A stretch of DNA of 34,833 bases from a bacterium. GTDB taxonomy: Bacteria > Bacteroidota > Bacteroidia > CAILMK01 > JACPUW01. Below the pieces are notes generated by a model. That model did not search any database and was not told where the DNA came from. It saw nothing but the letters and a program-made list of their open reading frames with translations. The position numbers and the translations under genes were made by a program. The stretch spans positions 1 to 34,833 of the forward strand of contig WGNN01000138.1 of NCBI GenBank assembly GCA_016124515.1. The letters run 5' to 3'. This document shows, piece by piece, positions 1 through 33,293 of the stretch (within the stretch, counting starts at the first letter, position 1; the number at the start of each line of letters is the position of its first letter).

Positions 1-252
1 AAATCTAATCTGAAAGCAAATCACAACACAAACTAAAAGACACCCTTCTACTCATTGGCTGTGACAAATATCCTAAAATCTAATCTGAAAGCAAATCACA
101 ACAGTTGCTTACCGAAGCAAACTCGGAGCTTGGCTGTGACAAATATCCTAAAATCTAATCTGAAAGCAAATCACAACGCGTTTGAGTACAAATTGTAGCT
201 CAATTCTGCTGTGACAAATATCCTAAAATCTAATCTGAAAGCAAATCACATT
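1..252 (-). CRISPR. Right end of a type II-C-like CRISPR array, 3 spacers
   Basis: A 45-nt repeat occurs at 1-27 (cut by the window edge), 58-102, 133-177 and 208-252, separated by spacers of exactly 30 nt at 28-57, 103-132 and 178-207. The complete copies are identical except that the last one has TT instead of AC at 251-252, the usual decay of a terminal repeat. Read on the minus strand the repeat starts GTTGTGATTTGCTTTC and ends TCACAGC, so its ends are near-perfect inverted complements. This resembles type II-C (Cas9) repeats known from Bacteroides and relatives, including the 30-nt spacer length. I therefore infer crRNA transcription from the minus strand. No cas gene or obvious tracrRNA anti-repeat is seen to the right of the array; they may lie to the left, or the array may be an orphan. 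The three spacers differ from each other and I see no protospacer in the window. Confidence 0.95.
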
Positions 253-413: not shown

Positions 414-962
414 TCATTTCGGGTTAAGATCCAGAAAATTAATCAACAACTTTTCGCATGCTCCAATTTTGTAATTGTAAAAGACCATTAAAAGTACGAA
501 ACTTACTGCGAGAACGATCGGGAAACCCCACCAATATTGCCAAATTGGGTCATCAATAAGGTTTGGAAACGCAATCATAATAGTCATGAAACCAAGGTTA
601 AAAATAAGCGCAGCAACAAGTATGGCTTTGGTAGTTTGCGGCAGGTGGTAATCAATTTTTACCACACTTCCGTTAGCAATTGATTGAATAGTTCCGGTAA
701 GCTCTGGGCGCAATTGGTTGTTGGGGCCGTAATCGAAGGTTTGCAGCAATTTAAACTGTTTGTTGCCAACAGTTCCTTCAAAATAGCATCCATTGTCTGA
801 ATTGGTATTGGATTTTTCAGTTATTTCAGCCAATATTATCTCGATCTTTTCCGCTGGTAAAAAACTGGCATATTGCATTTCTTTTCGAAATAACATGGTT
901 TTCGTCTTAGAATTGAAGTAAAAATAGTAATAATCAATAATGTCATTGATGAATTTAGCCAT
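414..962 (-). CDS. Two-helix membrane protein of unknown function
   Basis: I do not recognise this 182-aa protein. The frame is open to a TTG at 971, but the ATG at 962 is the better start. The first ~110 residues are soluble and mixed in composition, with an aromatic stretch (DYYYFYF) near the N-terminus. Two hydrophobic segments follow, at about 112-133 and 144-165, separated by a short loop rich in Trp (IWQYWWG). The C-terminus is a short tail (about 15 residues). This suggests an inner-membrane protein with an N-terminal cytoplasmic domain and a helical hairpin anchor. It sits alone between the CRISPR array and a small lipoprotein gene on the same strand, 226 bp away, and nothing in the sequence links it functionally to the array. 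Gene reality is likely from composition and length; function is unknown. Confidence 0.6.
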   Translation of the reverse strand: MAKFINDIIDYYYFYFNSKTKTMLFRKEMQYASFLPAEKIEIILAEITEKSNTNSDNGCYFEGTVGNKQFKLLQTFDYGPNNQLRPELTGTIQSIANGSVVKIDYHLPQTTKAILVAALIFNLGFMTIMIAFPNLIDDPIWQYWWGFPIVLAVSFVLLMVFYNYKIGACEKLLINFLDLNPK

Positions 963-1188
963 ACATGTCAAAATACAGCATTTCGCTCAAATTAATCAGT
1001 ACATCAACTAGGGTTCGGTTCCCTGTAATAATAAAGTGATGTTTTTGCTGCAATTCTCTCGCATTCCTGTGCAAATTAGGCGAGGACATGGTCTGTAGAA
1101 TACAAATCTGTCGGGTGGTTGTTTTATCTGTACGAAAGGCATTTTTCGGCTTTTGCTCGTTTCGGTACAGCTTATATATGCTTCGTTG

Positions 1189-19694: not shown

Positions 19695-21137
19695 TCAACT
19701 CCTTATTTTGAGCAAAGTAAAACCTTCGCGCAGTTTTATGAGCGGCACCAAAAATTCTGAGGATGATATTTGGATCGATTCTTTGGGAATGGCATAGCCA
19801 TCGAGTTCGCTGCCGCGAATAAAAATATCGCCTTCGCCTTGCCCATCAGGATTTACTTCATAAATAAGCACATTGCTCGATTTGCGCGACAAATCGTTGT
19901 AAATGAAATACAAACGATCGTCGGTTACCTGACAGCCGAATGAGGAATAATAACCTTCGTCGTTGAGCGAAATCTGTTCTTTCTTTATTACTTTATGCCA
20001 ATCAAGTGAGCCATCGGGGTTGATGGACAATACCGATATTTCATAATAATAATAGTAATACCTTACATAGGTTTGCTGCACGCCATACATCGATACATCG
20101 TCCAGTTGTTGTTCATCTATTTCGCGGCGTTCGCATATAAAAATATCACCCCCATCGGTTCGCTTCACCGTTTTCATCAGGTAGAGCGTTTTCATGTCGT
20201 TGTTGTTTCTGGCGCGGCCAAATATTTCGTTCATAAAAACCGGATGAAAAGCCAACTGCCGCTGTTTGGCGCTGTCTTGCTGTGTAAATATTTGGTATTG
20301 GAAAAAACCTATGGGTTTGGTGGTGTCTTCTTCGTAGTAAAAGGAGGTAAAATTGAACGATTTGGTCTTGTTGTCAAAACTGAAAAGTCCGTGATTGGTA
20401 ATAAAATTATCGCCATACAACTTGTGCAGGTAGGTTTTGCCGGTGGTCAGGTCTTTCTCAAGCAGTATTTTAAATTTTTCCCTTTTCAGCAGGCCATCTT
20501 TTTGGGTGTATGAAAGCACACAGAAATACTCATTGTTGACAAAGCGGTGGCGCGCCAACTCAAAATCCTGCTCAAAGTCTATGGTCAGCAGGTCTTTTTT
20601 CAGCACTTTGCAGTTGTTGTCAAGTACCAGCATTTCCAGGTTGTTGTACATAGAATCGCTGGTTTTAGCCACGGTTATCAGCAAACTTTTTCTGTCGCGT
20701 GCAGGATATACCTTAAAGAAATCGGTGCGGTGGTCGTCGGTCTTTTTGGTAAGTATGAGCTTGTCTTCAGAGATTTGGTTTAAGTCGGGATCCAGCATTT
20801 TCGCTTTCAACAACACCTCGCCCGAATTTCGCTCGCGTACCGAATAAATAAGTGCAATCCAATTGTCGAAGAGCACCAGTTTTTCCATGCTCTCGCTTTT
20901 GTTTTGCAAAAACTCCTTGCGCGTGCGCAGTTTCATATCCTGCCGCAATGCCGTTATTAATATGTGGCGGTCGCGTTCGTTTTTCGAGGTCTGGAAATAA
21001 TAAATACCGCTGTGGTTTTCGCCCAATATATTGGTGTAGAAGGTATGGTTGGTTATTTTTTGGGGCGTACTCCAAATCATTTCCTGCCCCTGTGCGGCGG
21101 CAGAAACCAACAGTAGTAAAAGGCTAACTAAGCGCAT
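19695..21137 (-). CDS. Secreted beta-rich protein of unknown function
   Basis: A 480-aa protein with a short signal peptide (MRLVSLLLLLVSAAAQGQ). The mature protein is a succession of short strand-like segments alternating with polar turns (SIYS-type hydrophobics, WIALIYSVRER, RLYFIYNDLS, VLIYEVNPDGQG), which suggests a beta-propeller-like repeat structure, but I recognise no named family. An unusual run of six tyrosines (VRYYYYYYEIS), encoded by an AT-rich triplet tract around 20045-20062, sits about two thirds along. There is no sorting domain, lipobox or membrane helix, so a periplasmic location or another export route is possible. It begins 61 bp after the end of prc on the same strand and is followed after one base by the next secreted unknown. 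A perfect TAnnTTTG element lies immediately before the ATG. Confidence 0.7.
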   Translation of the reverse strand: MRLVSLLLLLVSAAAQGQEMIWSTPQKITNHTFYTNILGENHSGIYYFQTSKNERDRHILITALRQDMKLRTRKEFLQNKSESMEKLVLFDNWIALIYSVRERNSGEVLLKAKMLDPDLNQISEDKLILTKKTDDHRTDFFKVYPARDRKSLLITVAKTSDSMYNNLEMLVLDNNCKVLKKDLLTIDFEQDFELARHRFVNNEYFCVLSYTQKDGLLKREKFKILLEKDLTTGKTYLHKLYGDNFITNHGLFSFDNKTKSFNFTSFYYEEDTTKPIGFFQYQIFTQQDSAKQRQLAFHPVFMNEIFGRARNNNDMKTLYLMKTVKRTDGGDIFICERREIDEQQLDDVSMYGVQQTYVRYYYYYYEISVLSINPDGSLDWHKVIKKEQISLNDEGYYSSFGCQVTDDRLYFIYNDLSRKSSNVLIYEVNPDGQGEGDIFIRGSELDGYAIPKESIQISSSEFLVPLIKLREGFTLLKIRS

Positions 21138-21141
21138 GAAA

Positions 21142-21149
21142 CAAATATA
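21142..21149 (-). promoter_or_regulatory. Putative -7 element (TATATTTG) before the 480-aa gene
   Basis: A perfect TAnnTTTG match on the minus strand whose last base is only four bases before the ATG at 21137. A transcript starting the usual 4-7 bases downstream would be nearly leaderless. No good TTG element is seen 19-21 bp further upstream. Confidence 0.35.
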
Positions 21150-21198
21150 ACAGCCAATGGCTTTGCGTGGCTAATTAATCTGGGGCAATTGCGCGTGG

Positions 21199-23328
21199 CT
21201 AGTGCAGCATGTCTTCCATTATCAGCAGTACTTCCGCCAGATAAAAATCTTCTTTCAGTTGTTTTTCCCATCGTTCCTTTTTCTCTTTAATCACATCTTC
21301 GCCATCCTCGGGCATGTACTCCTGCAAGCTCACAAAGCTTAGGGTTTCGTCGGGTGTAAATAGGTTTTTGAATTCTTTGTTGTTGTCTTCAAATTTTTTG
21401 CGCTCGGCCAGTTCGTCTTCCAGTTTCAGCGAAACCTGTGTTTCATCGCGTTCCTTTTTATACTCTGCATTGCGTGTTACCACCTCGTTGAAAACCGCAC
21501 TTTTGCTCACGCGTTTTTCGCTGTTTTTGCGCAGTTTGGCTATGTTGTAGTGGTTTTCGGTCCATTTGTTATACACAGCCGGCGATATAGAATCCCAGGG
21601 CAGTGGATTTTCGTACGACTTGATGCTGGATTCCATGTAGCCATATTCGTTGGGCAGGTAAATGTGCGGATGCACGCCTTTGAGCTGGGTAGATGCGCCG
21701 TTGATGCGGTAGAATTGCTGGATGGTAATTTTTACGGATCCAAGCGGGCGGGTGGGAATGGCATTTTCTGAAACGAATTGGTTCAAATCGAGCATGGTTT
21801 GCACGGTGCCTTTGCCAAAGGTGTGGCTACCCACCACCACAGCGCGGTCGTAGTCTTTTAGCGCGGCGGCCAAAATTTCGCTTGCCGATGCGCTGAAGTT
21901 GTTGACCATGATAATGAGCGGACCATCATAAGCCACTTCGGCATTGCGGTCGCCATATACCCGTGCCGGACGGTTTTCGTTTTTCACCTGTACCACGGGG
22001 CCTCTTTCAAAAAAGTGGCCGGCCATATCCACCGCGTCTTGCAGTGAGCCGCCGCCGTTGTTGCGCAGGTCGAGTATAATGCCCGATACATTTTCGGCTT
22101 TCAGGCGAAGGGCTTCTTTTCTTATATCTTCCGCACTTTCGCGTCCTTCCTTGGCGCCAAAGGTTGAGTAAAAGCTGGGCAGGTAGATGTAGCCTATTTT
22201 GTGCTTGGTTTTGCTGTTGGTTATCAAAGCCGATTTGGCATAGGTTTCTTCCTGCACCACCACATCGCGTATTATGGATATTTCCTTGATTTCGCCGGTG
22301 GGTTTTTGCACGGTCAGGCGCACTTCAGTTCCCTTGGGTCCGCGTATCAGGCTTATGGCGTCTTTCATGGTGGCATCCACAATATCCACCGGTTCCTGAT
22401 CGGCTTGGCCTACTTTCAGTATCAGGTCATTTTCTTTCAAATCGCCCTGACGCCACGAGGCGCTGCCCGGCACTATAGACACCACTTTGATGTATTCGTT
22501 TTCTTTCATCAGCTGTGCACCAATGCCTTCAAGGCGGCCTGTCATGCGCATTTCAAAATTTTCGCGCTCCTGCGGTGGAAAGTATTCGGTGTGCGGGCCA
22601 AAAGCCGCATTGAGGCTGTTTATGAACACCGCAAACTGGTCTTCGTCGTCAATTTCCTTGCGGCGCTTGTAGCGGGTTTCCAGGTTTTCCAAAATCTGCT
22701 CGCGCGATTTTGATTCCATGTCTTCCTCACTTTCTGCTTCAAATGCTTCTCCGCGTTTCTCGGCTTTCTCCTCGTCTTTTTGCTGCTTGTCTATTTTGTT
22801 GGCCAAGCGGCTCATCACCATGTATTTGGCATATTGTTGCCAGTATTTGAGTCTTTCTTCTTTGTTTTTGAAATAGCTGCGCTTGTCGGGGTCGGTTTCA
22901 AAGCTTTCGCTTACTGTAAAGTCGAAGGCTTTGTCAAACAAGCCGGGGGTCAGCTCTTCCACTTCGTCAAGGCGTTTATATAGCAGCTCCACCGCCTCAA
23001 AGTAAAACTCCAACTTGCCGTTTTTCAATTCGTCATCAATGCTGTACTTGTATTTTTCCAGTGCATCAATGTCTTCCTGCAAAAAGTATTGTTTGTTGTA
23101 GTCCAGGTTTTCCAGGTATTTGTTGAAGGTAAATTCCGAAACTTCGTCGTTTACCGTTTTGGAGCTGTAGTGGTCGTTGTTGAGCAAATTCACCATTATT
23201 TCAGATATAATGGCTTCGTCGGCAAGTGCTTTTACACGGTACCTGCTCTGCTGGTGCTGGCTCGCATAGGTCCATGCACCAATGAGCAAAATGAGGAGGG
23301 TAAAAGGCACAATATATTTACGTTTCAT
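21199..23328 (-). CDS. prc: Carboxy-terminal processing protease Prc/Tsp (S41)
   Basis: A periplasmic tail-specific protease that trims or degrades envelope proteins from their C-termini. The frame is open to a TTG at 23343, but the ATG at 23328 (MKRKYIVPFTLLILLIGAW) gives a clean N-terminal signal or anchor and a 709-aa protein, close to the 682-aa E. coli Prc. Order: N-terminal helical region about 30-235 with a Lys/Glu-rich insert (180-215); PDZ domain about 255-350 (RLEGIGAQL, GSASWRQGDLKENDLILKVG); S41 peptidase core 360-540; C-terminal tail-specific-protease domain 540-709. The catalytic dyad is Ser481 (in NNFSASASEI) and Lys506 (in FGKGTVQ), spaced 25 residues as in E. coli (Ser452/Lys477). 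It lies 83 bp downstream of a PLP-enzyme gene and upstream of two secreted unknowns, which could be substrates or partners, but only position suggests this. Confidence 0.95.
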   Translation of the reverse strand: MKRKYIVPFTLLILLIGAWTYASQHQQSRYRVKALADEAIISEIMVNLLNNDHYSSKTVNDEVSEFTFNKYLENLDYNKQYFLQEDIDALEKYKYSIDDELKNGKLEFYFEAVELLYKRLDEVEELTPGLFDKAFDFTVSESFETDPDKRSYFKNKEERLKYWQQYAKYMVMSRLANKIDKQQKDEEKAEKRGEAFEAESEEDMESKSREQILENLETRYKRRKEIDDEDQFAVFINSLNAAFGPHTEYFPPQERENFEMRMTGRLEGIGAQLMKENEYIKVVSIVPGSASWRQGDLKENDLILKVGQADQEPVDIVDATMKDAISLIRGPKGTEVRLTVQKPTGEIKEISIIRDVVVQEETYAKSALITNSKTKHKIGYIYLPSFYSTFGAKEGRESAEDIRKEALRLKAENVSGIILDLRNNGGGSLQDAVDMAGHFFERGPVVQVKNENRPARVYGDRNAEVAYDGPLIIMVNNFSASASEILAAALKDYDRAVVVGSHTFGKGTVQTMLDLNQFVSENAIPTRPLGSVKITIQQFYRINGASTQLKGVHPHIYLPNEYGYMESSIKSYENPLPWDSISPAVYNKWTENHYNIAKLRKNSEKRVSKSAVFNEVVTRNAEYKKERDETQVSLKLEDELAERKKFEDNNKEFKNLFTPDETLSFVSLQEYMPEDGEDVIKEKKERWEKQLKEDFYLAEVLLIMEDMLH

Positions 23329-23411: not shown

Positions 23412-24494
23412 TTATAAATTCATGGTACGGATGCTTTCGCCGTCAAAACTAACATATTTGCCCATGCTGTGCGCGGTAAGGCATGAATGAACGGGCAATA
23501 CCCCAACAAAATCGCCCACTTGGCAGCTGTTGAAAACTGATTGGCTCAACTGCATAATGCCGTGTTCCTGCGAAAGTGAGATGAGGTGGCAGTTGGGCTG
23601 CAAGGTGCTCCAACCCTCATTATGCAAATGCACCAATTGACCAAAATGGGCTGTTTGGCTCGGGGAAATCAATTGTTCTTTGGAAAAGTGAACCGCTCCG
23701 CCGTGAATGACAATCTGTTGTTTTTCGTGGTGTTTTTCAACTATGGGGCAAGCCATGCACACAGCTATGTCTTCTTCGCTGCAACTGCCAAACTGCGCTT
23801 GCATCAGGTCGTAAAACACAAAATTGCCCGCGGTCAGGTGGCTTATGCCTTCAAAACTTTGGGCCGTGGAGCAACCGGGGGTATCGCCAAAATAAACCGG
23901 TCCGTTGTATGACAGCTTTTCGCGTAAGAGCACAATAGCCTTCAATGCGTTTTGGTGTAGCTGTTTGGTGGCCCCCGGCTGTTGGTAGGTAGTGCCGTTG
24001 TGCACGTAAAAACCCGCCATATCATGTGTTGATTGTTCTACTTCATCAACCAAGGCGGCTATAAGGTTGTGGTTGGCAATGTCAATTCCCGTACGGCCAT
24101 AGTTGGGGTCAAGGTCTATGAACACCGAAATGCCATCGGTGTTTTTTAAAGCTTGTAAATGCGCTGTACACGAGATGTTTACGCTCAAATTGGTCTTTCG
24201 CGCAAGCTGTTGCAAACGGGCGGCCTGCGAGGCAATGGGCGGCATAGCCAAATGGATGTGGCTGTAGTTGTCAGCTGCAAAGTACTCGGCCATTGCGAGC
24301 GAAGAAACCGTGATTGCATTAACTCCGGCTTCCTTAAAAAGGCAACCTATTTGTATGGATTGGTGGGTTTTGAAATGCGGCTGGAAAATGAGCTTGTGCT
24401 TGTGGCATTTTTCAGCCATTCGGGCAATATTGCCACGCACTTTTTGCAAATCGACAAGCAGGGAGGGCTCGCTAAGGTTTTTTAGTTGCAGCAC
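23412..24494 (-). CDS. PLP enzyme, D-serine dehydratase/D-threonine aldolase type
   Basis: A 360-aa fold-type III (alanine racemase-like) PLP enzyme. The Schiff-base lysine is Lys42 in PHFKTHQS; the barrel continues with FIDLDPNYGRTGI (125-137), FYVHNGTTY (162-170) and GDTPGCST (203-210). The C-terminal domain has the metal-site pair His336-x-Cys338 (PVHSCLTAH). Eukaryotic D-serine dehydratases (DSD1) use His-x-Cys here, whereas D-threonine aldolases characterised in Arthrobacter use His-x-Asp, so D-serine or a related D-beta-hydroxy amino acid is the more likely substrate; the exact reaction is inferred. Translation appears to start at a GTG (24494), because a TAG stop immediately precedes it in frame and the next Met (residue 27) would cut into the conserved N-terminus. 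The start overlaps the end of the upstream DUF4199 gene by 23 bp, suggesting coupling. Confidence 0.85.
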   Translation of the reverse strand: MLQLKNLSEPSLLVDLQKVRGNIARMAEKCHKHKLIFQPHFKTHQSIQIGCLFKEAGVNAITVSSLAMAEYFAADNYSHIHLAMPPIASQAARLQQLARKTNLSVNISCTAHLQALKNTDGISVFIDLDPNYGRTGIDIANHNLIAALVDEVEQSTHDMAGFYVHNGTTYQQPGATKQLHQNALKAIVLLREKLSYNGPVYFGDTPGCSTAQSFEGISHLTAGNFVFYDLMQAQFGSCSEEDIAVCMACPIVEKHHEKQQIVIHGGAVHFSKEQLISPSQTAHFGQLVHLHNEGWSTLQPNCHLISLSQEHGIMQLSQSVFNSCQVGDFVGVLPVHSCLTAHSMGKYVSFDGESIRTMNL

Positions 24495-25002
24495 CTAGTG
24501 GCAATTTTAATACGACCAAAGCTTCAATGAGAATGATGAAAAAACCCAGCATTACCATGTTTGAAAAGTTGGCCATGCCCATACTGCCCGGGGCAAACAC
24601 GGCGTGGTACATTTCTTCTCTTTTGGTCAGTTCTTCTACACTTGTGGTGGGGTCTTGTTTGGCCATTTGTTTTTGCACCATATAGTCGGTGTAGCCGCTG
24701 TTTACAAAATGGTAGAAGATAGAGGAAAGCACAAGCACAAGTACCGAGGCTGCCAATAAAGTAACACCTGCCGAAAGTGCAAGTGTGCCGTATTTCAAGT
24801 CGTTTGCCGGGGTTTTGAACTTGGCTGCACGCATGGCCATGTAGCAACCAATTACTATCACAAGCGTGTTTGAAAGCAACATACTCATGGTTTTGTATTG
24901 CATGTTTTCGCCCTGAATTCCAAGCAAATATTCTCCTATCCACCAAATAAACATGGCAAAGGCCATCCAGAAGCCTATTTTCAATTCGGTTTTAATATCC
25001 AT
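24472..25002 (-). CDS. DUF4199-family membrane protein
   Basis: A 176-aa integral membrane protein starting MDIKTELKIGFWMAFAMFIWW. The frame opens at a TTG (25020), but the ATG at 25002 fits both the family and the promoter just upstream. Hydrophobic segments lie at about 9-29, 38-57, 71-94 and 147-168, with a polar loop (residues ~95-145, MVQKQMAKQD, LTKREEMYH) between the third and fourth. This pattern matches DUF4199, a family of small four-helix membrane proteins common in Bacteroidota with no known function; I make the match by recall of the family's look, not by search. Its end overlaps the GTG start of the PLP-enzyme gene by 23 bp, so it leads the minus-strand cluster that may continue to prc and the two secreted unknowns. 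Confidence 0.75.
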   Translation of the reverse strand: MDIKTELKIGFWMAFAMFIWWIGEYLLGIQGENMQYKTMSMLLSNTLVIVIGCYMAMRAAKFKTPANDLKYGTLALSAGVTLLAASVLVLVLSSIFYHFVNSGYTDYMVQKQMAKQDPTTSVEELTKREEMYHAVFAPGSMGMANFSNMVMLGFFIILIEALVVLKLPLGAATKKP

Positions 25003-28403: not shown

Positions 28404-31400
28404 CTACCTGATAAGCTGAAGGGTTCCTTTGTACGAAAGTATTTCCTGGTTTTTGCCGCGTAAAAACAGCACCACGGCATAGTTTCCCTCCGCGCAGGTT
28501 TTGCCGTTTGTAGTGCCGTCCCAGACTTTTCCCACATCCTGCGATTCAAAAACGAGTTGCCCCCAACGGTTGTATATACGCAGGGCATTTACATTGAAAG
28601 TGGTAATGCTGTCTTGCCACAATATGCCCGCTCCTTTCACTTCAAACAAGTCGTTGATGCCATCATTATTTGGGCTGAATGCAGTAGGTACAAAAAAGGT
28701 AGGCACCGGCAGCAGTTTTATGGTGTTGGAGTAGCTGCTGTCTTGTTGGTGGCTTCCTACAATTTTTTCAATGGCAATTACGCGGTATTCGGTAGCTTGT
28801 TCGCTGTTGTTCAAAAAGGCAGTTGTATCGGTAAATTGTGTTGCCCAAGGTTCCACCTCTGCAAGTTTTTCAAACCGGCCACTTTCGGTTCTTTTCTCAA
28901 TTCGGTAGTTCAGCACATCGGCCTCCCAGTTTTCGTATTTGTTCCAATGCAAGCAAAAGTTGCCGTTTTCAATACTGCTGCTTAGGAAAATGCTGGTGGC
29001 TATATTGCTTGATGCCGTAGTGTTTCCGCAAAAATCGTGTGCCTGAACGGTGTAGGCATAGGCTTCGCGCTGCGTAAAGGCGTGCGCATCAAGAAAACTT
29101 GTGGTGTCGCCGGGTCTTGCAATGGTTTGAAACACATCGGGCCGCGAAAGTGCTTTTCGGTTGATGAAATAATTTGTGGTATTACGCAAACGACCTTGTG
29201 CCCAACGCAACTGTACGCCATTGCTTTCTACCGTGGCCAATTGCAATTTTAGTGGATCCAACTTGTAGTTGTAGGCTACTTCATGTGCCACGCTGTTGCT
29301 TAGGCTGTTGCGTGTTTCCAATCCTTTTACTGCTTCTATGTAATATCCGTAGTCGCCGTTGCATATAGCTGAGTCGATGTAACTTAAGTTGTTGTTTGAA
29401 AGCCTGGCAATGAGTTTATTTTGTTGGTTGTAGTTGCGGTAAAGATGGTATCGCTGCAAGCTATCCCAGCCAATATATGGTGTCCAATTGAGCAAAGAAA
29501 AGTCGGTATTGTTGCTGTCAACGCTCAGGTGTACCGCACAATGGGTTTTGGCCGACCAAGTGTGTTCGCATTTGTCAATGAGCTGCATTTTAATGCAATA
29601 GGGTGGCTTGCAGGGCTTCAGATTCAGCTGCATCATGGTGTCGGTAAGCAGGTAGCTTGAGCCCAAAAGTACTCCTGTCGCTTCGTTGTACAAGCGGTAT
29701 TTATTAAAGGCAAAAGCATTGGCGGGTTTCCAGCTTGCCAACAACATGCTGTCGTTTATCATGCTGATAAAGTGGAGCTTAGGCGAGTCAACCGGCAGGT
29801 TTTTCATAATCTCCAATACCTTGCTTTTTGTAATGGATTGCGTACATCCGTGGGCATCAACCACTTTGAGCATAAAACTGTAAGTGCCTTCTTTGGCAAA
29901 AACCAACACCTTATCGGCGGGCATGGCAAATTTTGCAAAGGCTGAATCGTTGCTTTTGAACCACTCTCTGCTGTTAATGGCTGCCGTGGCGGTTGACAAG
30001 TCGCTGAAAGTAACTTTTCTATTGGTGCAAGTAAGGCTGTCGTCGAGCGAAAAATCGGGTTTTGGCAATTCAAAAACCGTTAAATCACGGTCAAGATACA
30101 TCGTGTCGTTGCAGTTCAATTTATTCGCAACCACCAATCTGGGGCGGTATTTACCGGCGTTGAGAGTAAAGTCAACTTGCCTGAGTGTGTCTGTAGCAGT
30201 GCTGTTTTGCCCCACTTGCCATTGCCAACGGTAGGCGTATCGCGAACTGTCGGTAAGTGTAATTTGCAGTGGTTCGCAAGAATCGTTTTTGTTGCAGGTA
30301 AAAAAGGCCCGCGGTTTGGCGTAAACCACTATGCTGTCCTCAAGTCCTTTTATTATAGTGCAGCCATTGTTGTCTTTTCCAATGACACTTGGTCTGAAAA
30401 TCTGAAACTCTTTGTTGTTTTTTACATGGTAATGATGCGATGAAAAACCAACAGAATCGAGTGAAGAGTTGTCGCCGTAGTCGAAATATATTTTGGCGGC
30501 GTTTTTACTCTTGTTTTTAAAACTAACGGCAAGCGGTTCGCAGCCGAAATTATTGCCGATTTTAAAATCGAGGAATGGGCTGTTTACCATTATTAAATGT
30601 GGTTTAAAAATGGTGTCGGCACAACCGTATTTGTTTTTTGCGATAAAGCTAATGTCAAAAGTGTTTTTTGGGCTTTTTTGCCTGCTCAGGTCATATACCT
30701 TGTAGGTTTCGGATTGGGCGGTGTGCACCAAGCTGCTGCTGTCGCCAAAATTCCAGATAAACGAATCGGCATTCACTGCCACAGCTTCAAAAGCATAAAA
30801 GGCCGGCGAGCATTTTACGGTAGTATCTACATTGAAAGCAGCGCTGAATGGGATGACAAACAGGCGTTTATGCACAGAGTCGCTGCAATTTTTATCGTTC
30901 CATACCTTCAAATGCAAGTCGTATTGGCCAAGGGTGTCAAGTGGAAAAAGTGGGGTTTTACTGTGGCTGACTGCGTTCATGCCGGGTCCTTTCAAAAGCC
31001 ATTGCATGCTATCAATTTGGCCAATTGAATAGTTGGCGGGTTGCAGGTTTACACTGGAACAAAAAGTGTCGGGTGCGGTAAACCTTGCTTGCAAGTCATA
31101 TTGGTACAGGCCGTTAATTTGCGAGGTAGCCACACAGCCCTGTTGGTTTTTTATTTGTAATTCAATAGAAATATTAGACTTGGTATTGACGGTAATAGAA
31201 GTGGTGGCACTATCGGGTTGGGCAAAGTAAACACCATTTTGCGCCGAGGCCCAATGATAGTCGGGCTTATTGCTTTTATTGACGTCATAGGCCTTGTTTT
31301 CTTCAATTTTCGCTTTCAACAAACCGGTAAATGGATAACAGGGAAACAGCGTGTCGAATGCATACGAAGCGGTGATGCCACCAATTTTAAGATGCTTTTG

Positions 31401-33293
31401 GACGGTGATGCTGTCGCGACAATCGCCGGTTTTGTATTTAAGCAACACATCATATTTTCCCGCTTTTGTGATATCGAAAAATAACTTTTGATTGGCATAA
31501 TCAACCTGAGCCGAAAAGGAATCTGTGGTATTATAAGCTTTTGCCCAGATTTGCAATGCCGCTCCTTTGTTGCTGTTTTGGTAAGGCACGGCAATGGTAT
31601 CGCCCACACAATATATAATAGGTTGCTTGTCAATAGAAATCAGGTTGAGTGGTTTTATGTTCAGAAACGAATCAACACCAAAGGTATCGGTGCAACCTGC
31701 ATCATTTTGGGCAATGGCAACTACGCGGTATTTTCCGTTTGATGGCGGCGAGAAGGTGTAATTAAGTGTATTCGATTGGTCGGTCAGTTGGCCTTTTTCA
31801 TCATAAACAAACCACTTGATATCCGTTATTTTGTTGAAGCAAATACTGTCGTCGAGCTTGATATTTATGTCTTTTCCCGGGCAGCTTACTTTGTTGTCGG
31901 GGCTGAAATGTGCCACAAATGGCTTGGCACTGAACTCATACTTGTCGGTGGCTTTGCAACCGAGGCTGTCTTCCGCCTCAAGCAACAGCGTGTATTTACC
32001 CGCTTTGTGCAGCTTGTAAGTAAAACCAATGCTGTCAACCATGCGGAGCAGTTGGCTTTTGTTGTCGCTCAGTTGCCAGTTTATTTTTCGCAGGCCGTTG
32101 TCGGCGCCCACTTTTGCTGCAATGTTCAGTTGTTGCGGCAATTGGCAATAGCATTTATCGCCTTTTATAATGGAGGTATTAATAACAGGTTTTTGAGCGG
32201 TAAACTCCAGGCTGTCGGTAAGCAGGCACTGTGGGTATTTGTAGCTCACATAGAGCTTATAATCGCCGTTTTTGGTGGCGGTTGCTATCATTGAATCAGC
32301 CGAAAGGTTATTAATAAGTAAGCTATCTCCGTGCTGATGGCTCCAGGTTATGTTGGCTGCATCTAGGTTTTTATTCAGCAGTTTCACCGATACTTTATTG
32401 CCTTTGCAGTTGGTGCCGTATAGGTTTCTGTCGCTTATTTTTAGTGGTGCTACATGGTAAACACTTACAAAATTTGGCCACTTAAATGAGTACACGCAGC
32501 CCGTATTGGCGTATCGAACGCTTGCCGAAATATCGTATCGTCCACTATCGGCATACCTTACCCTAGTAGGCGTAAAGGTGGTTTGTGAGTCGGTATTGCT
32601 ATGTGGAAAATACCAGGTTATTACCGGCTTAGTTGTATCGGAAGATGAGAATTTGGGGCTCAATTTCAAGCTGTTTCCTGAGCAAATTGAGGCACTGTCG
32701 GCGGCAAGTGTGAGCTGCGGTTTTAATTTGACAAAGGCCACAGAATCAAACACATGGCTGGTAATACAGTTGTTTTCGCTTTGCAAAACCATTTGGATTT
32801 GTACAGGGCCGCTTTTCTTGAATTTATGCGCAATTTGGTTGCCGGTGTTTTTGTAGGTTTTGCTTTCTATAACCCAGGTCCAATATTTGGTGTTTTTTGA
32901 TGTGTTATAAAAAATAACCGAATCGTCGCGGCTGCAAATGATTTTGTTTTTGGTCATTATTTTACCCACATCGGGTTTTCCCTTCACTTGGATATAGCCA
33001 GCTTTTTTAAGGCTGCAAGTGCTGCCATCATTGAATTTGAGCGCAAGCTTTACATCGTAGCTGCCTGCTTTTTGGTAGGATAGGGAGGGAGTGGAATCGT
33101 TTTTAATAACTTTTATTCCAAAATCCCAGGTTATTGAAGACAGGTTTTTTGGGGCGGGCTGCAAGCTAAAGCGTACAATCCCGTTCTCACAAATTGAGGT
33201 GTCAGATGCCTTGATGCCATAATTGCACTGGGCCGATACATACCCGGTACAGTACAGCATGGCTAAGATTAACCAACCGCGTTTTATTACCAT
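28404..33293 (-). CDS. Giant secreted PKD/FN3 protein with type B (CHU_C) sorting domain
   Basis: A 1629-aa protein. Signal peptide 1-22 (MVIKRGWLILAMLYCTGYVSAQ). Residues ~24-1150 are a long string of roughly a dozen Ig/PKD-like modules, many opening with a cysteine-containing strand (TSICENG, IICSRDD, ASICSGN) and closing with a GxYxV or GKYxL strand (GSYDVKL, GRYDISA, GKYTLLL). Residues about 1166-1529 look like four fibronectin-III-like modules (YRLYNEATG, YHLYRNYNQ, YRIEKRTESG). Residues 1530-1629 are the gliding-motility-associated C-terminal domain (CHU_C, T9SS type B): FVPTAFSPNNDGINDLF, RIYNRWGQLVFES, WDGTTNGK and ENYAVVL-like GNYAVVL. Type B domains direct export through T9SS, and such proteins are often attached by PorP/SprF-type partners, none of which is in this window. 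No catalytic domain is visible; a cell-surface or filamentous adhesin role is inferred. Confidence 0.93.
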   Translation of the reverse strand: MVIKRGWLILAMLYCTGYVSAQCNYGIKASDTSICENGIVRFSLQPAPKNLSSITWDFGIKVIKNDSTPSLSYQKAGSYDVKLALKFNDGSTCSLKKAGYIQVKGKPDVGKIMTKNKIICSRDDSVIFYNTSKNTKYWTWVIESKTYKNTGNQIAHKFKKSGPVQIQMVLQSENNCITSHVFDSVAFVKLKPQLTLAADSASICSGNSLKLSPKFSSSDTTKPVITWYFPHSNTDSQTTFTPTRVRYADSGRYDISASVRYANTGCVYSFKWPNFVSVYHVAPLKISDRNLYGTNCKGNKVSVKLLNKNLDAANITWSHQHGDSLLINNLSADSMIATATKNGDYKLYVSYKYPQCLLTDSLEFTAQKPVINTSIIKGDKCYCQLPQQLNIAAKVGADNGLRKINWQLSDNKSQLLRMVDSIGFTYKLHKAGKYTLLLEAEDSLGCKATDKYEFSAKPFVAHFSPDNKVSCPGKDINIKLDDSICFNKITDIKWFVYDEKGQLTDQSNTLNYTFSPPSNGKYRVVAIAQNDAGCTDTFGVDSFLNIKPLNLISIDKQPIIYCVGDTIAVPYQNSNKGAALQIWAKAYNTTDSFSAQVDYANQKLFFDITKAGKYDVLLKYKTGDCRDSITVQKHLKIGGITASYAFDTLFPCYPFTGLLKAKIEENKAYDVNKSNKPDYHWASAQNGVYFAQPDSATTSITVNTKSNISIELQIKNQQGCVATSQINGLYQYDLQARFTAPDTFCSSVNLQPANYSIGQIDSMQWLLKGPGMNAVSHSKTPLFPLDTLGQYDLHLKVWNDKNCSDSVHKRLFVIPFSAAFNVDTTVKCSPAFYAFEAVAVNADSFIWNFGDSSSLVHTAQSETYKVYDLSRQKSPKNTFDISFIAKNKYGCADTIFKPHLIMVNSPFLDFKIGNNFGCEPLAVSFKNKSKNAAKIYFDYGDNSSLDSVGFSSHHYHVKNNKEFQIFRPSVIGKDNNGCTIIKGLEDSIVVYAKPRAFFTCNKNDSCEPLQITLTDSSRYAYRWQWQVGQNSTATDTLRQVDFTLNAGKYRPRLVVANKLNCNDTMYLDRDLTVFELPKPDFSLDDSLTCTNRKVTFSDLSTATAAINSREWFKSNDSAFAKFAMPADKVLVFAKEGTYSFMLKVVDAHGCTQSITKSKVLEIMKNLPVDSPKLHFISMINDSMLLASWKPANAFAFNKYRLYNEATGVLLGSSYLLTDTMMQLNLKPCKPPYCIKMQLIDKCEHTWSAKTHCAVHLSVDSNNTDFSLLNWTPYIGWDSLQRYHLYRNYNQQNKLIARLSNNNLSYIDSAICNGDYGYYIEAVKGLETRNSLSNSVAHEVAYNYKLDPLKLQLATVESNGVQLRWAQGRLRNTTNYFINRKALSRPDVFQTIARPGDTTSFLDAHAFTQREAYAYTVQAHDFCGNTTASSNIATSIFLSSSIENGNFCLHWNKYENWEADVLNYRIEKRTESGRFEKLAEVEPWATQFTDTTAFLNNSEQATEYRVIAIEKIVGSHQQDSSYSNTIKLLPVPTFFVPTAFSPNNDGINDLFEVKGAGILWQDSITTFNVNALRIYNRWGQLVFESQDVGKVWDGTTNGKTCAEGNYAVVLFLRGKNQEILSYKGTLQLIR

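What the first reader, a model, noticed from the sequence alone, without database searches (positions are those of the whole stretch)
1..252. Each CRISPR repeat may carry its own Bacteroidota-type promoter
Seen: on the minus strand every complete repeat has TTTG at repeat positions 8-11, a 19-nt spacer, then GATATTTG at 31-38, seven bases before the spacer begins. This fits the Bacteroidota promoter pattern TTTG-N19-TAnnTTTG with one mismatch. A start 4-7 bases after the -7 element would fall at the repeat-spacer junction. Known: in Neisseria and Campylobacter type II-C arrays, promoters inside repeats start individual crRNAs within spacers, making RNase III processing dispensable. Inference: the same logic may be built here with the very different Bacteroidota promoter code.
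Basis: partly seen in the sequence, partly recalled or inferred. Interest (0 to 1): 0.6.

Follow-up and report, generated by a model that had tools for sequence, protein, structure and literature searches.

The report
Promoters inside Bacteroidota CRISPR repeats
Many Bacteroidota Cas9 (type II-C) CRISPR repeats appear to carry their own Bacteroidota-type promoter just beyond the part that pairs with tracrRNA, but the repeat in this window is a weak, shifted example, and promoters inside type II-C repeats were already known or proposed.

Summary
The letters reported are there: three complete 45-nt repeats read TTTG (8-11), 19 nt, GATATTTG (31-38) on the minus strand. Taken alone this is weak. 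Shuffling the repeat tail gives a match with at most one mismatch at that exact spacing in 1.7% of cases, at N17-21 in 8%, and anywhere in 34%. I then compared 92 distinct II-C repeats beside cas9 across Bacteroidota. The idea survives, but in a different register. Of 60 long (44-57 nt) repeats, 25 carry exact TAnnTTTG on the crRNA strand, against 0 on the other strand and about 1 in shuffles. It sits mostly at positions 23-31, 18-19 nt after TTG at 2-4, just outside the tracrRNA-paired part. The same -7 motif lies directly before the tracrRNA anti-repeat (29 of 65 loci exact, 2 expected). The flank before the arrays shows no such motif above chance. In the terminal repeat the tracr-pairing half decays and the -7 part is kept. 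The window's register is found in about 7 of 60 long repeats, and its G1 in 0 of 32 tracr promoters. Repeat-borne promoters are published for Campylobacter and proposed for Flavobacterium. Verdict: a new variant of a known kind; the window is marginal; no RNA ends were available.

The parts
208..252 (-). R0, oldest and leader-distal repeat (5' end on the crRNA strand), first two bases AA instead of GT, otherwise consensus
133..177 (-). R1, complete 45-nt repeat
58..102 (-). R2, complete 45-nt repeat
1..27 (-). R3, partial repeat cut by the contig end (positions 1-27 only, no -7 part)
178..207 (-). spacer 1 (30 nt), the first that an R0 promoter would transcribe
103..132 (-). spacer 2 (30 nt)
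28..57 (-). spacer 3 (30 nt)
215..222 (-). candidate -7 element GATATTTG of R0 (repeat 31-38), one mismatch to TAnnTTTG
   Evidence: sequence; matrix score 4.3; outside the tracr-paired region 2-27
140..147 (-). candidate -7 element GATATTTG of R1
   Evidence: sequence
65..72 (-). candidate -7 element GATATTTG of R2
   Evidence: sequence
242..245 (-). candidate -33 element TTTG of R0 (repeat 8-11), also inside the tracr-pairing part
   Evidence: pairing
225..232 (-). alternative -7 site TAGATTTT of R0 (repeat 21-28), near the place where relatives carry TATCTTTG; overlaps tracr pairing; low score
253..413 (-). flank upstream of the array on the crRNA strand: no exact TAnnTTTG (nearest upstream on this strand at 1411) and no terminator-like element before the same-strand ORF ending at 414

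Best explanation
This is the leader-distal (oldest) end of a type II-C array, cut by the contig end. Its repeats have two halves. Nucleotides 2 to about 24-27 pair with the tracrRNA, which is encoded upstream of cas9 on another contig of the same genome. The 3' part carries a primary-sigma (Bacteroidota) -7 element that starts transcription of the next spacer-repeat unit. In most relatives with 44-57-nt repeats the promoter is TTG (2-4) - 18/19 nt - TATCTTTG (23-31), with a start about 11 nt before the spacer. In the window that site has degenerated, and a shifted promoter, TTTG (8-11) - 19 nt - GATATTTG (31-38), is the most likely replacement, starting at the repeat-spacer junction. Each transcript would then need only tracrRNA-guided processing at its 3' side. 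Shown: anatomy, conservation, strand bias, spacing, tracr pairing limits, lack of an external -7 element, decay pattern of the terminal repeat. Inferred: that transcription really starts there, and the exact start positions.
For: (1) 25/60 distinct long repeats have exact TAnnTTTG on the crRNA strand, 0/60 on the other strand, about 1.2/60 in shuffles; at most one mismatch in 55/60. (2) Starts cluster at 23-24, i.e. N18-19 after TTG(2-4) (best site at N17-19 in 42/60; 20 of 25 exact ones at N18-19). In tracr promoters TTG lies N18-20 upstream of the -7 in 19 of 32. (3) The motif lies just 3' of the tracr-paired part: pairing ends mostly at 21-27 in the 29 long loci with a defined tracr start. 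(4) tracrRNA genes carry exact TAnnTTTG within 30 nt before the anti-repeat in 29/65 loci (2.0 by shuffling), usually 4 nt before it; TACATTTG in this genome. (5) No excess of TAnnTTTG in the 100 nt upstream of arrays (3/71 against 3.9 shuffled). (6) In 29 decayed long R0 repeats, 45% of positions 1-16 are changed but 1.3% of -7 positions. (7) 0/7 II-C repeats from other phyla (one of them, L098, a probable contaminant contig) and 0/8 type I repeats from Bacteroidota have the exact motif; four of the seven other-phylum repeats end in a -10-like box, TACAAT or TATAAT. (8) Repeats that lack the usual site tend to have the shifted one (6 of 9 with a shifted site lack the usual one, against 8 of 51; Fisher p = 0.003).
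Against: No RNA 5' ends were available. The window's own site has G at position 1 (0 of 32 tracr promoters) and is marginal by chance. TTG(2-4) and TTTG(8-11) are constrained by tracr pairing and so are not independent support. R0 keeps its whole 3' half, not only the -7, and loses the -33 (another TTG at N16-21 in only 5 of 27). Repeats are related: 60 long ones fall into 26 groups, 7 with an exact motif. The nn positions are mostly TC in repeats, more uniform than in tracr promoters, so descent or another function may contribute. Most of the 36-nt Bacteroidota repeats lie on a different plan and lack the full motif (exact in 4 of 32). The cas9 relation rests on anti-repeat complementarity, since the array and cas9 are on separate contigs of a draft genome.
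Confidence: 0.6

Rival explanations
1. The conserved [TG]ATCTTTGA core in the repeat is not a promoter but a recognition element for Cas1-Cas2 spacer integration (or for Cas9/RNase III), and the array is transcribed some other way.
For: The core is more uniform (nn mostly TC) than tracr promoters of the same loci; the R0 decay pattern keeps the whole 3' half, not only the -7; repeat interiors matter for integration in several CRISPR types (general knowledge).
Against: The motif equals the sigma consensus, has a TTG at promoter spacing and matches the motif at tracrRNA starts; R0 is never an integration site yet keeps it; the element moves within the repeat (starts at 22-28 and 31-32), unlike a fixed ruler signal.
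Confidence: 0.17
2. The arrays are transcribed from outside by read-through or a weak promoter upstream of the oldest repeat, and processed by RNase III as in type II-A.
For: In the window an ORF on the same strand (414-971) ends 161 nt before R0 with no terminator-like element between.
Against: No excess of the -7 motif upstream of 71 arrays, although the same test finds it readily at tracrRNA; published reads in F. columnare are within the array and run toward the leader, though only eight (PMC8092290).
Confidence: 0.15
3. In this particular repeat the GATATTTG match is a chance product of an AT-rich tail; the family may use repeat promoters but this array's promoter is lost or elsewhere.
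For: 34% of shuffled tails give a match with at most one mismatch somewhere; G at position 1 is not seen in tracr promoters.
Against: Exact spacing to TTTG (1.7% by chance); one other genome has the same GATATTTGTNACAGC end (L169), and five further repeats use positions 31-32.
Confidence: 0.35
4. The 5'-biased decay of R0 is neutral (outer part free, inner part kept identical by recombination with neighbours) or selected only to break tracr pairing, and says nothing about promoters.
For: Leader-distal repeats decay in many CRISPR types, and 5' decay in II-C has been read as a block on extraneous crRNA (PMC12080349); junctions in long repeats usually leave 24 nt or more of homology.
Against: The same authors suggest R0 must keep its promoter; in this set junctions in the 3' half are rare.
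Confidence: 0.4

Closest known systems
Repeat-embedded crRNA promoters of Campylobacter jejuni and Neisseria meningitidis type II-C
   Same: [quoted passage not shown] the terminal repeat loses its tracr-pairing half.
   Different: There the element is an (extended) -10 box (GGTAAAAT, TACAAT) ending at the repeat-spacer junction with starts inside the spacer (position 5 in C. jejuni, PMC3656092); here it is the Bacteroidota -7 TAnnTTTG, usually 15-16 nt before the spacer, with a predicted start still inside the repeat.
Proposed repeat-encoded promoter of Flavobacterium columnare (PMC8092290) and F. psychrophilum (PMC10309648)
   Same: Same phylum and subtype, same idea of a Bacteroidota promoter in the repeat, TTG proposed as -33, transcription toward the leader.
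   Different: Those papers name only the TTG and show few or bulk RNA reads. The -7 element, its spacing, its position outside tracr pairing and its spread over the phylum were not given in the passages I read.
Bacteroidota primary sigma promoter (TTTG at -33, TAnnTTTG at -7; PMC7366714)
   Same: Motif, spacing and strand match in many long repeats and at tracrRNA starts.
   Different: The window's copy has G at position 1 of the -7.
Degenerate extra repeat of II-C arrays (PMC12080349)
   Same: R0 changes fall mostly in the first 15 or so positions.
   Different: Here the pattern is examined in Bacteroidota and read against the -7 element, which stays intact in 26 of 29 decayed long R0 repeats.

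Membership tests
Type II-C CRISPR-Cas | Cas9 in the same genome | tested here: met
   cas9 on contig C117, 1218 aa, TIGR01865 465 bits, RuvC_III and HNH domains; subtype II-C inferred from relatives' loci
Type II-C CRISPR-Cas | tracrRNA anti-repeat complementary to this repeat | tested here: met
   L006 4816-4791 minus, pairs with repeat 2-27, followed by TAAGGATTATTCCG and a terminator-like hairpin with T run
Type II-C CRISPR-Cas | cas1-cas2 downstream of cas9, no csn2/cas4 | tested here: inconclusive
   no type II cas1 over cut-off in this 82%-complete draft; contigs break on both sides
Type II-C repeat-embedded promoters | crRNA strand runs toward the leader/cas genes so the leader cannot supply the promoter | tested here: met
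   relatives' arrays lie downstream of cas9 on the opposite strand; in the window the degenerate oldest repeat is at the 5' end of the crRNA strand; cas side not in the window
Type II-C repeat-embedded promoters | promoter motif in the repeats of the group above chance | tested here: met
   for long Bacteroidota repeats as a set
Type II-C repeat-embedded promoters | promoter motif above chance in the window's own repeat | tested here: inconclusive
   one mismatch; 1.7-34% by chance depending on the freedom allowed
Type II-C repeat-embedded promoters | 5'-triphosphate crRNA ends at each unit | not testable with these tools
   no RNA data
Bacteroidota primary sigma promoter | -7 TAnnTTTG | tested here: not met
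   window has GATATTTG (one mismatch); relatives met in 25/60 exactly, 55/60 within one mismatch
Bacteroidota primary sigma promoter | -33 TTG/TTTG about 17-21 nt upstream | tested here: met
   TTTG-N19 in the window; TTG(2-4)-N18/19 in relatives; tracr promoters N18-20
Neisseria/Campylobacter-type -10 in repeat | TAnnAT or TATAAT-like hexamer at 31-36 | tested here: not met
   window has GATATT at 31-36; four of seven other-phylum II-C repeats end TACAAT or TATAAT

The most novel reading that the evidence does not exclude
Across Bacteroidota the II-C repeat is split in two: a tracr-pairing half that ends where the tracrRNA itself starts, and a promoter half with a complete -33/-7 primary-sigma promoter. 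Both guide RNAs thus start from the same kind of promoter, and every crRNA is made from its own start about 11 nt upstream of the spacer. Repeats that lost the usual -7 have rebuilt it about 7 nt downstream, at the same distance from the second TTG; the window would be one of these.
Probability: 0.5. Interest if true: 0.6.

Novelty: new variant of a known kind. Interest (0 to 1): 0.45.

Why it matters
It would show that the one-promoter-per-repeat design of type II-C arrays persists in a phylum whose primary sigma factor reads a different promoter code, with the repeat adapted to that code. It may help explain why many Bacteroidota II-C repeats are about 10 nt longer than others. It also gives a testable 5' end for crRNAs when Bacteroidota Cas9 systems are moved into other hosts, where the repeat promoter might not be read.

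Tried and rejected
(a) Completion of the -7 in 36-nt repeats by spacers starting with TG: no bias (TG start 6.3% against 6.1% interior for GATATT ends). (b) External promoter upstream of arrays: no excess. (c) -33 rebuilt in the replaced flank of R0: 5 of 27 only. (d) Genome-wide count of TTG-N17-21-TAnnTTTG in the own genome: not above the reversed control, uninformative. (e) Single-linkage clustering of repeat tails with gaps collapsed 48 repeats into one group and was too coarse; replaced by same-length clusters. (f) Relatives by protein in genome contigs gave only two loci, and a viral scan gave none.

Full report
Observation. The window is the whole of contig C112 of a 3.8-Mb draft genome (82% complete). 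Its left end cuts an array of 45-nt repeats and 30-nt spacers. The copies are identical, so this is one observation; shuffling the tail of the repeat gives a -7 with at most one mismatch at that exact spacing in 1.7% of trials, at N17-21 in 8.4% and anywhere in 34%.

What the array is. cas9 lies on contig C117. Upstream of it is a tracrRNA gene: TACATTTG immediately followed by the anti-repeat AAATCTAAATCTGAAGCAAATCACAA, then TAAGGATTATTCCGTTGTGAAAACA and a terminator-like hairpin (L006, from 4824 downwards on the minus strand). The anti-repeat pairs with repeat positions 2-27. The array is therefore taken to be the type II-C array of this genome, although no type II cas1 was found in the draft. 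The right-hand repeat (252-208) is the oldest one, R0, at the 5' end of the crRNA strand; the cas side is beyond the contig end.

Comparative set. I searched about 800 Bacteroidota genomes with the Cas9 model, fetched about 135 cas9 regions and found arrays with my own script. This gave 92 distinct repeats: 32 of 36 nt and 60 of 44-57 nt. Orientation was set by the 5' end GTTGTG and agrees with 65 tracrRNA genes recognised by complementarity and the conserved TAAGG that follows.

The Bacteroidota -7 element. Long repeats contain exact TAnnTTTG in 25 of 60 on the crRNA strand, 0 of 60 on the other strand, and 1.2 per 60 when the tail is shuffled (strand test p = 2.5e-9, which ignores relatedness). 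Grouped into 26 clusters, 7 have an exact motif against 0 on the other strand, and 24 against 10 are within one mismatch. Most are TATCTTTG at 23-31. The distance to TTG at 2-4 is 18-19 nt in 20 of the 25 exact cases, and the best site lies at N17-19 in 42 of 60. So the register proposed from the window is not the usual one.

An internal yardstick. In 29 of 65 loci an exact TAnnTTTG lies within 30 nt before the tracrRNA anti-repeat (2.0 expected), usually 4 nt before it. A matrix trained on 32 of these sites has T at position 1 in 32 of 32 and G at position 8 in 30 of 32, and TTG lies 18-20 nt upstream in 19. Training required at most one mismatch to the consensus. With this matrix TATCTTTG scores 10.9, the window's GATATTTG 4.3 and its other candidate TAGATTTT 0.8. 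In loci with a clear tracr start, pairing with long repeats ends mostly at positions 21-27, where the repeat -7 begins. The motif is thus not explained by tracr pairing, while the TTGs lie inside the paired part and are not independent evidence.

No external promoter. In the 100 nt upstream of R0 the exact motif occurs in 3 of 71 arrays (3.9 shuffled). In the window the nearest exact -7 on that strand is at 1411.

The terminal repeat. R0 serves no crRNA except as a possible promoter for spacer 1. In 36 of 76 arrays with enough flank it has two or more changes, almost all in the first 22 positions, often as a block of unrelated sequence. In 29 such long repeats 45% of positions 1-16, 1.3% of -7 positions and 2% of later positions are changed. 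This decay is known for II-C and has been read as breaking tracr pairing while keeping the promoter (PMC12080349). It agrees with a promoter but does not prove one, because the whole 3' half is kept, the -33 is lost, and recombination with neighbouring repeats could do the same. Loss of the -33 may be tolerable: PMC7366714 cites a study in F. johnsoniae that found the -7 but no -33.

The window's minority register. Seven of 60 long repeats, including the window, have a -7 candidate at 30-33 with TTTG at 8-11. Repeats with a site there tend to lack the usual one (6 of 9 against 8 of 51, p = 0.003 without correction for relatedness). The two TTGs are 7 nt apart, so the shift keeps the spacing. 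I infer that the window repeat uses GATATTTG, but with less confidence than for the family.

Controls. Seven II-C repeats from other phyla (six from plasmids, one from a probable contaminant contig, L098) have no exact motif, and four of them end in TACAAT or TATAAT. Eight type I repeats from Bacteroidota have none either. Both controls are small. The 36-nt Bacteroidota repeats often end in GATATT, TAGATT or TACATT at 31-36, where other phyla have their -10 box; the first two spacer bases do not complete a TTTG.

Prior work. Repeat-borne promoters are established in C. jejuni by dRNA-seq (PMC3656092). For Bacteroidota, F. columnare (TTG 33 bp upstream of each spacer, eight reads; PMC8092290) and F. 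psychrophilum (PMC10309648) were proposed to use a repeat-borne promoter. A Riemerella study found none (PMC5006608), but with a tool from a fruit-fly genome project. I found no paper in the held library giving the -7 element in these repeats; subscription journals are mostly missing.

Verdict. The window repeat is a plausible but weak case, and direct evidence of transcription starts is missing.

Noticed in passing
L150 (array on the minus strand), about 25 copies: A type II-C repeat of 57 nt, about 10 nt longer than any other in the set; its best -7 candidate (TAAATTTA) starts at position 36.
   Followed up: partly
36-nt repeats, e.g. L052, L040, L039: Many 36-nt Bacteroidota II-C repeats end in GATATT, TAGATT or TACATT where other phyla end in TACAAT; GATATT lies outside tracr pairing and is kept although the preceding bases differ. 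Function (promoter or integration) not settled.
   Followed up: partly
L097, upstream of the first full repeat: The degenerate outer repeat contains an inserted piece with an inverted repeat (CCGTC...GACGG) between TTTCTTTGACATA and ATTAAAACCAAG.
   Followed up: no
   Followed up: no
own genome, contig C110 (cas3 21025-22179, cas1-like 23996-24640): The genome also carries a cas3 and a cas1 relative, so a second CRISPR system of another type is likely.
   Followed up: no
L006 3-149 and 261-407: Two 147-nt direct repeats, 92% alike, at the end of the cas9 contig; possibly why the assembly broke there.
   Followed up: no
window 414-971 minus: A 185-aa open frame without a Pfam match ends 161 nt before the array on the same strand, with no terminator-like element between; read-through into the array is possible.
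   Followed up: partly
window 28404-33293 minus: 1629-aa protein with PKD domains and a type IX secretion C-terminal signal (CHU_C).
   Followed up: no
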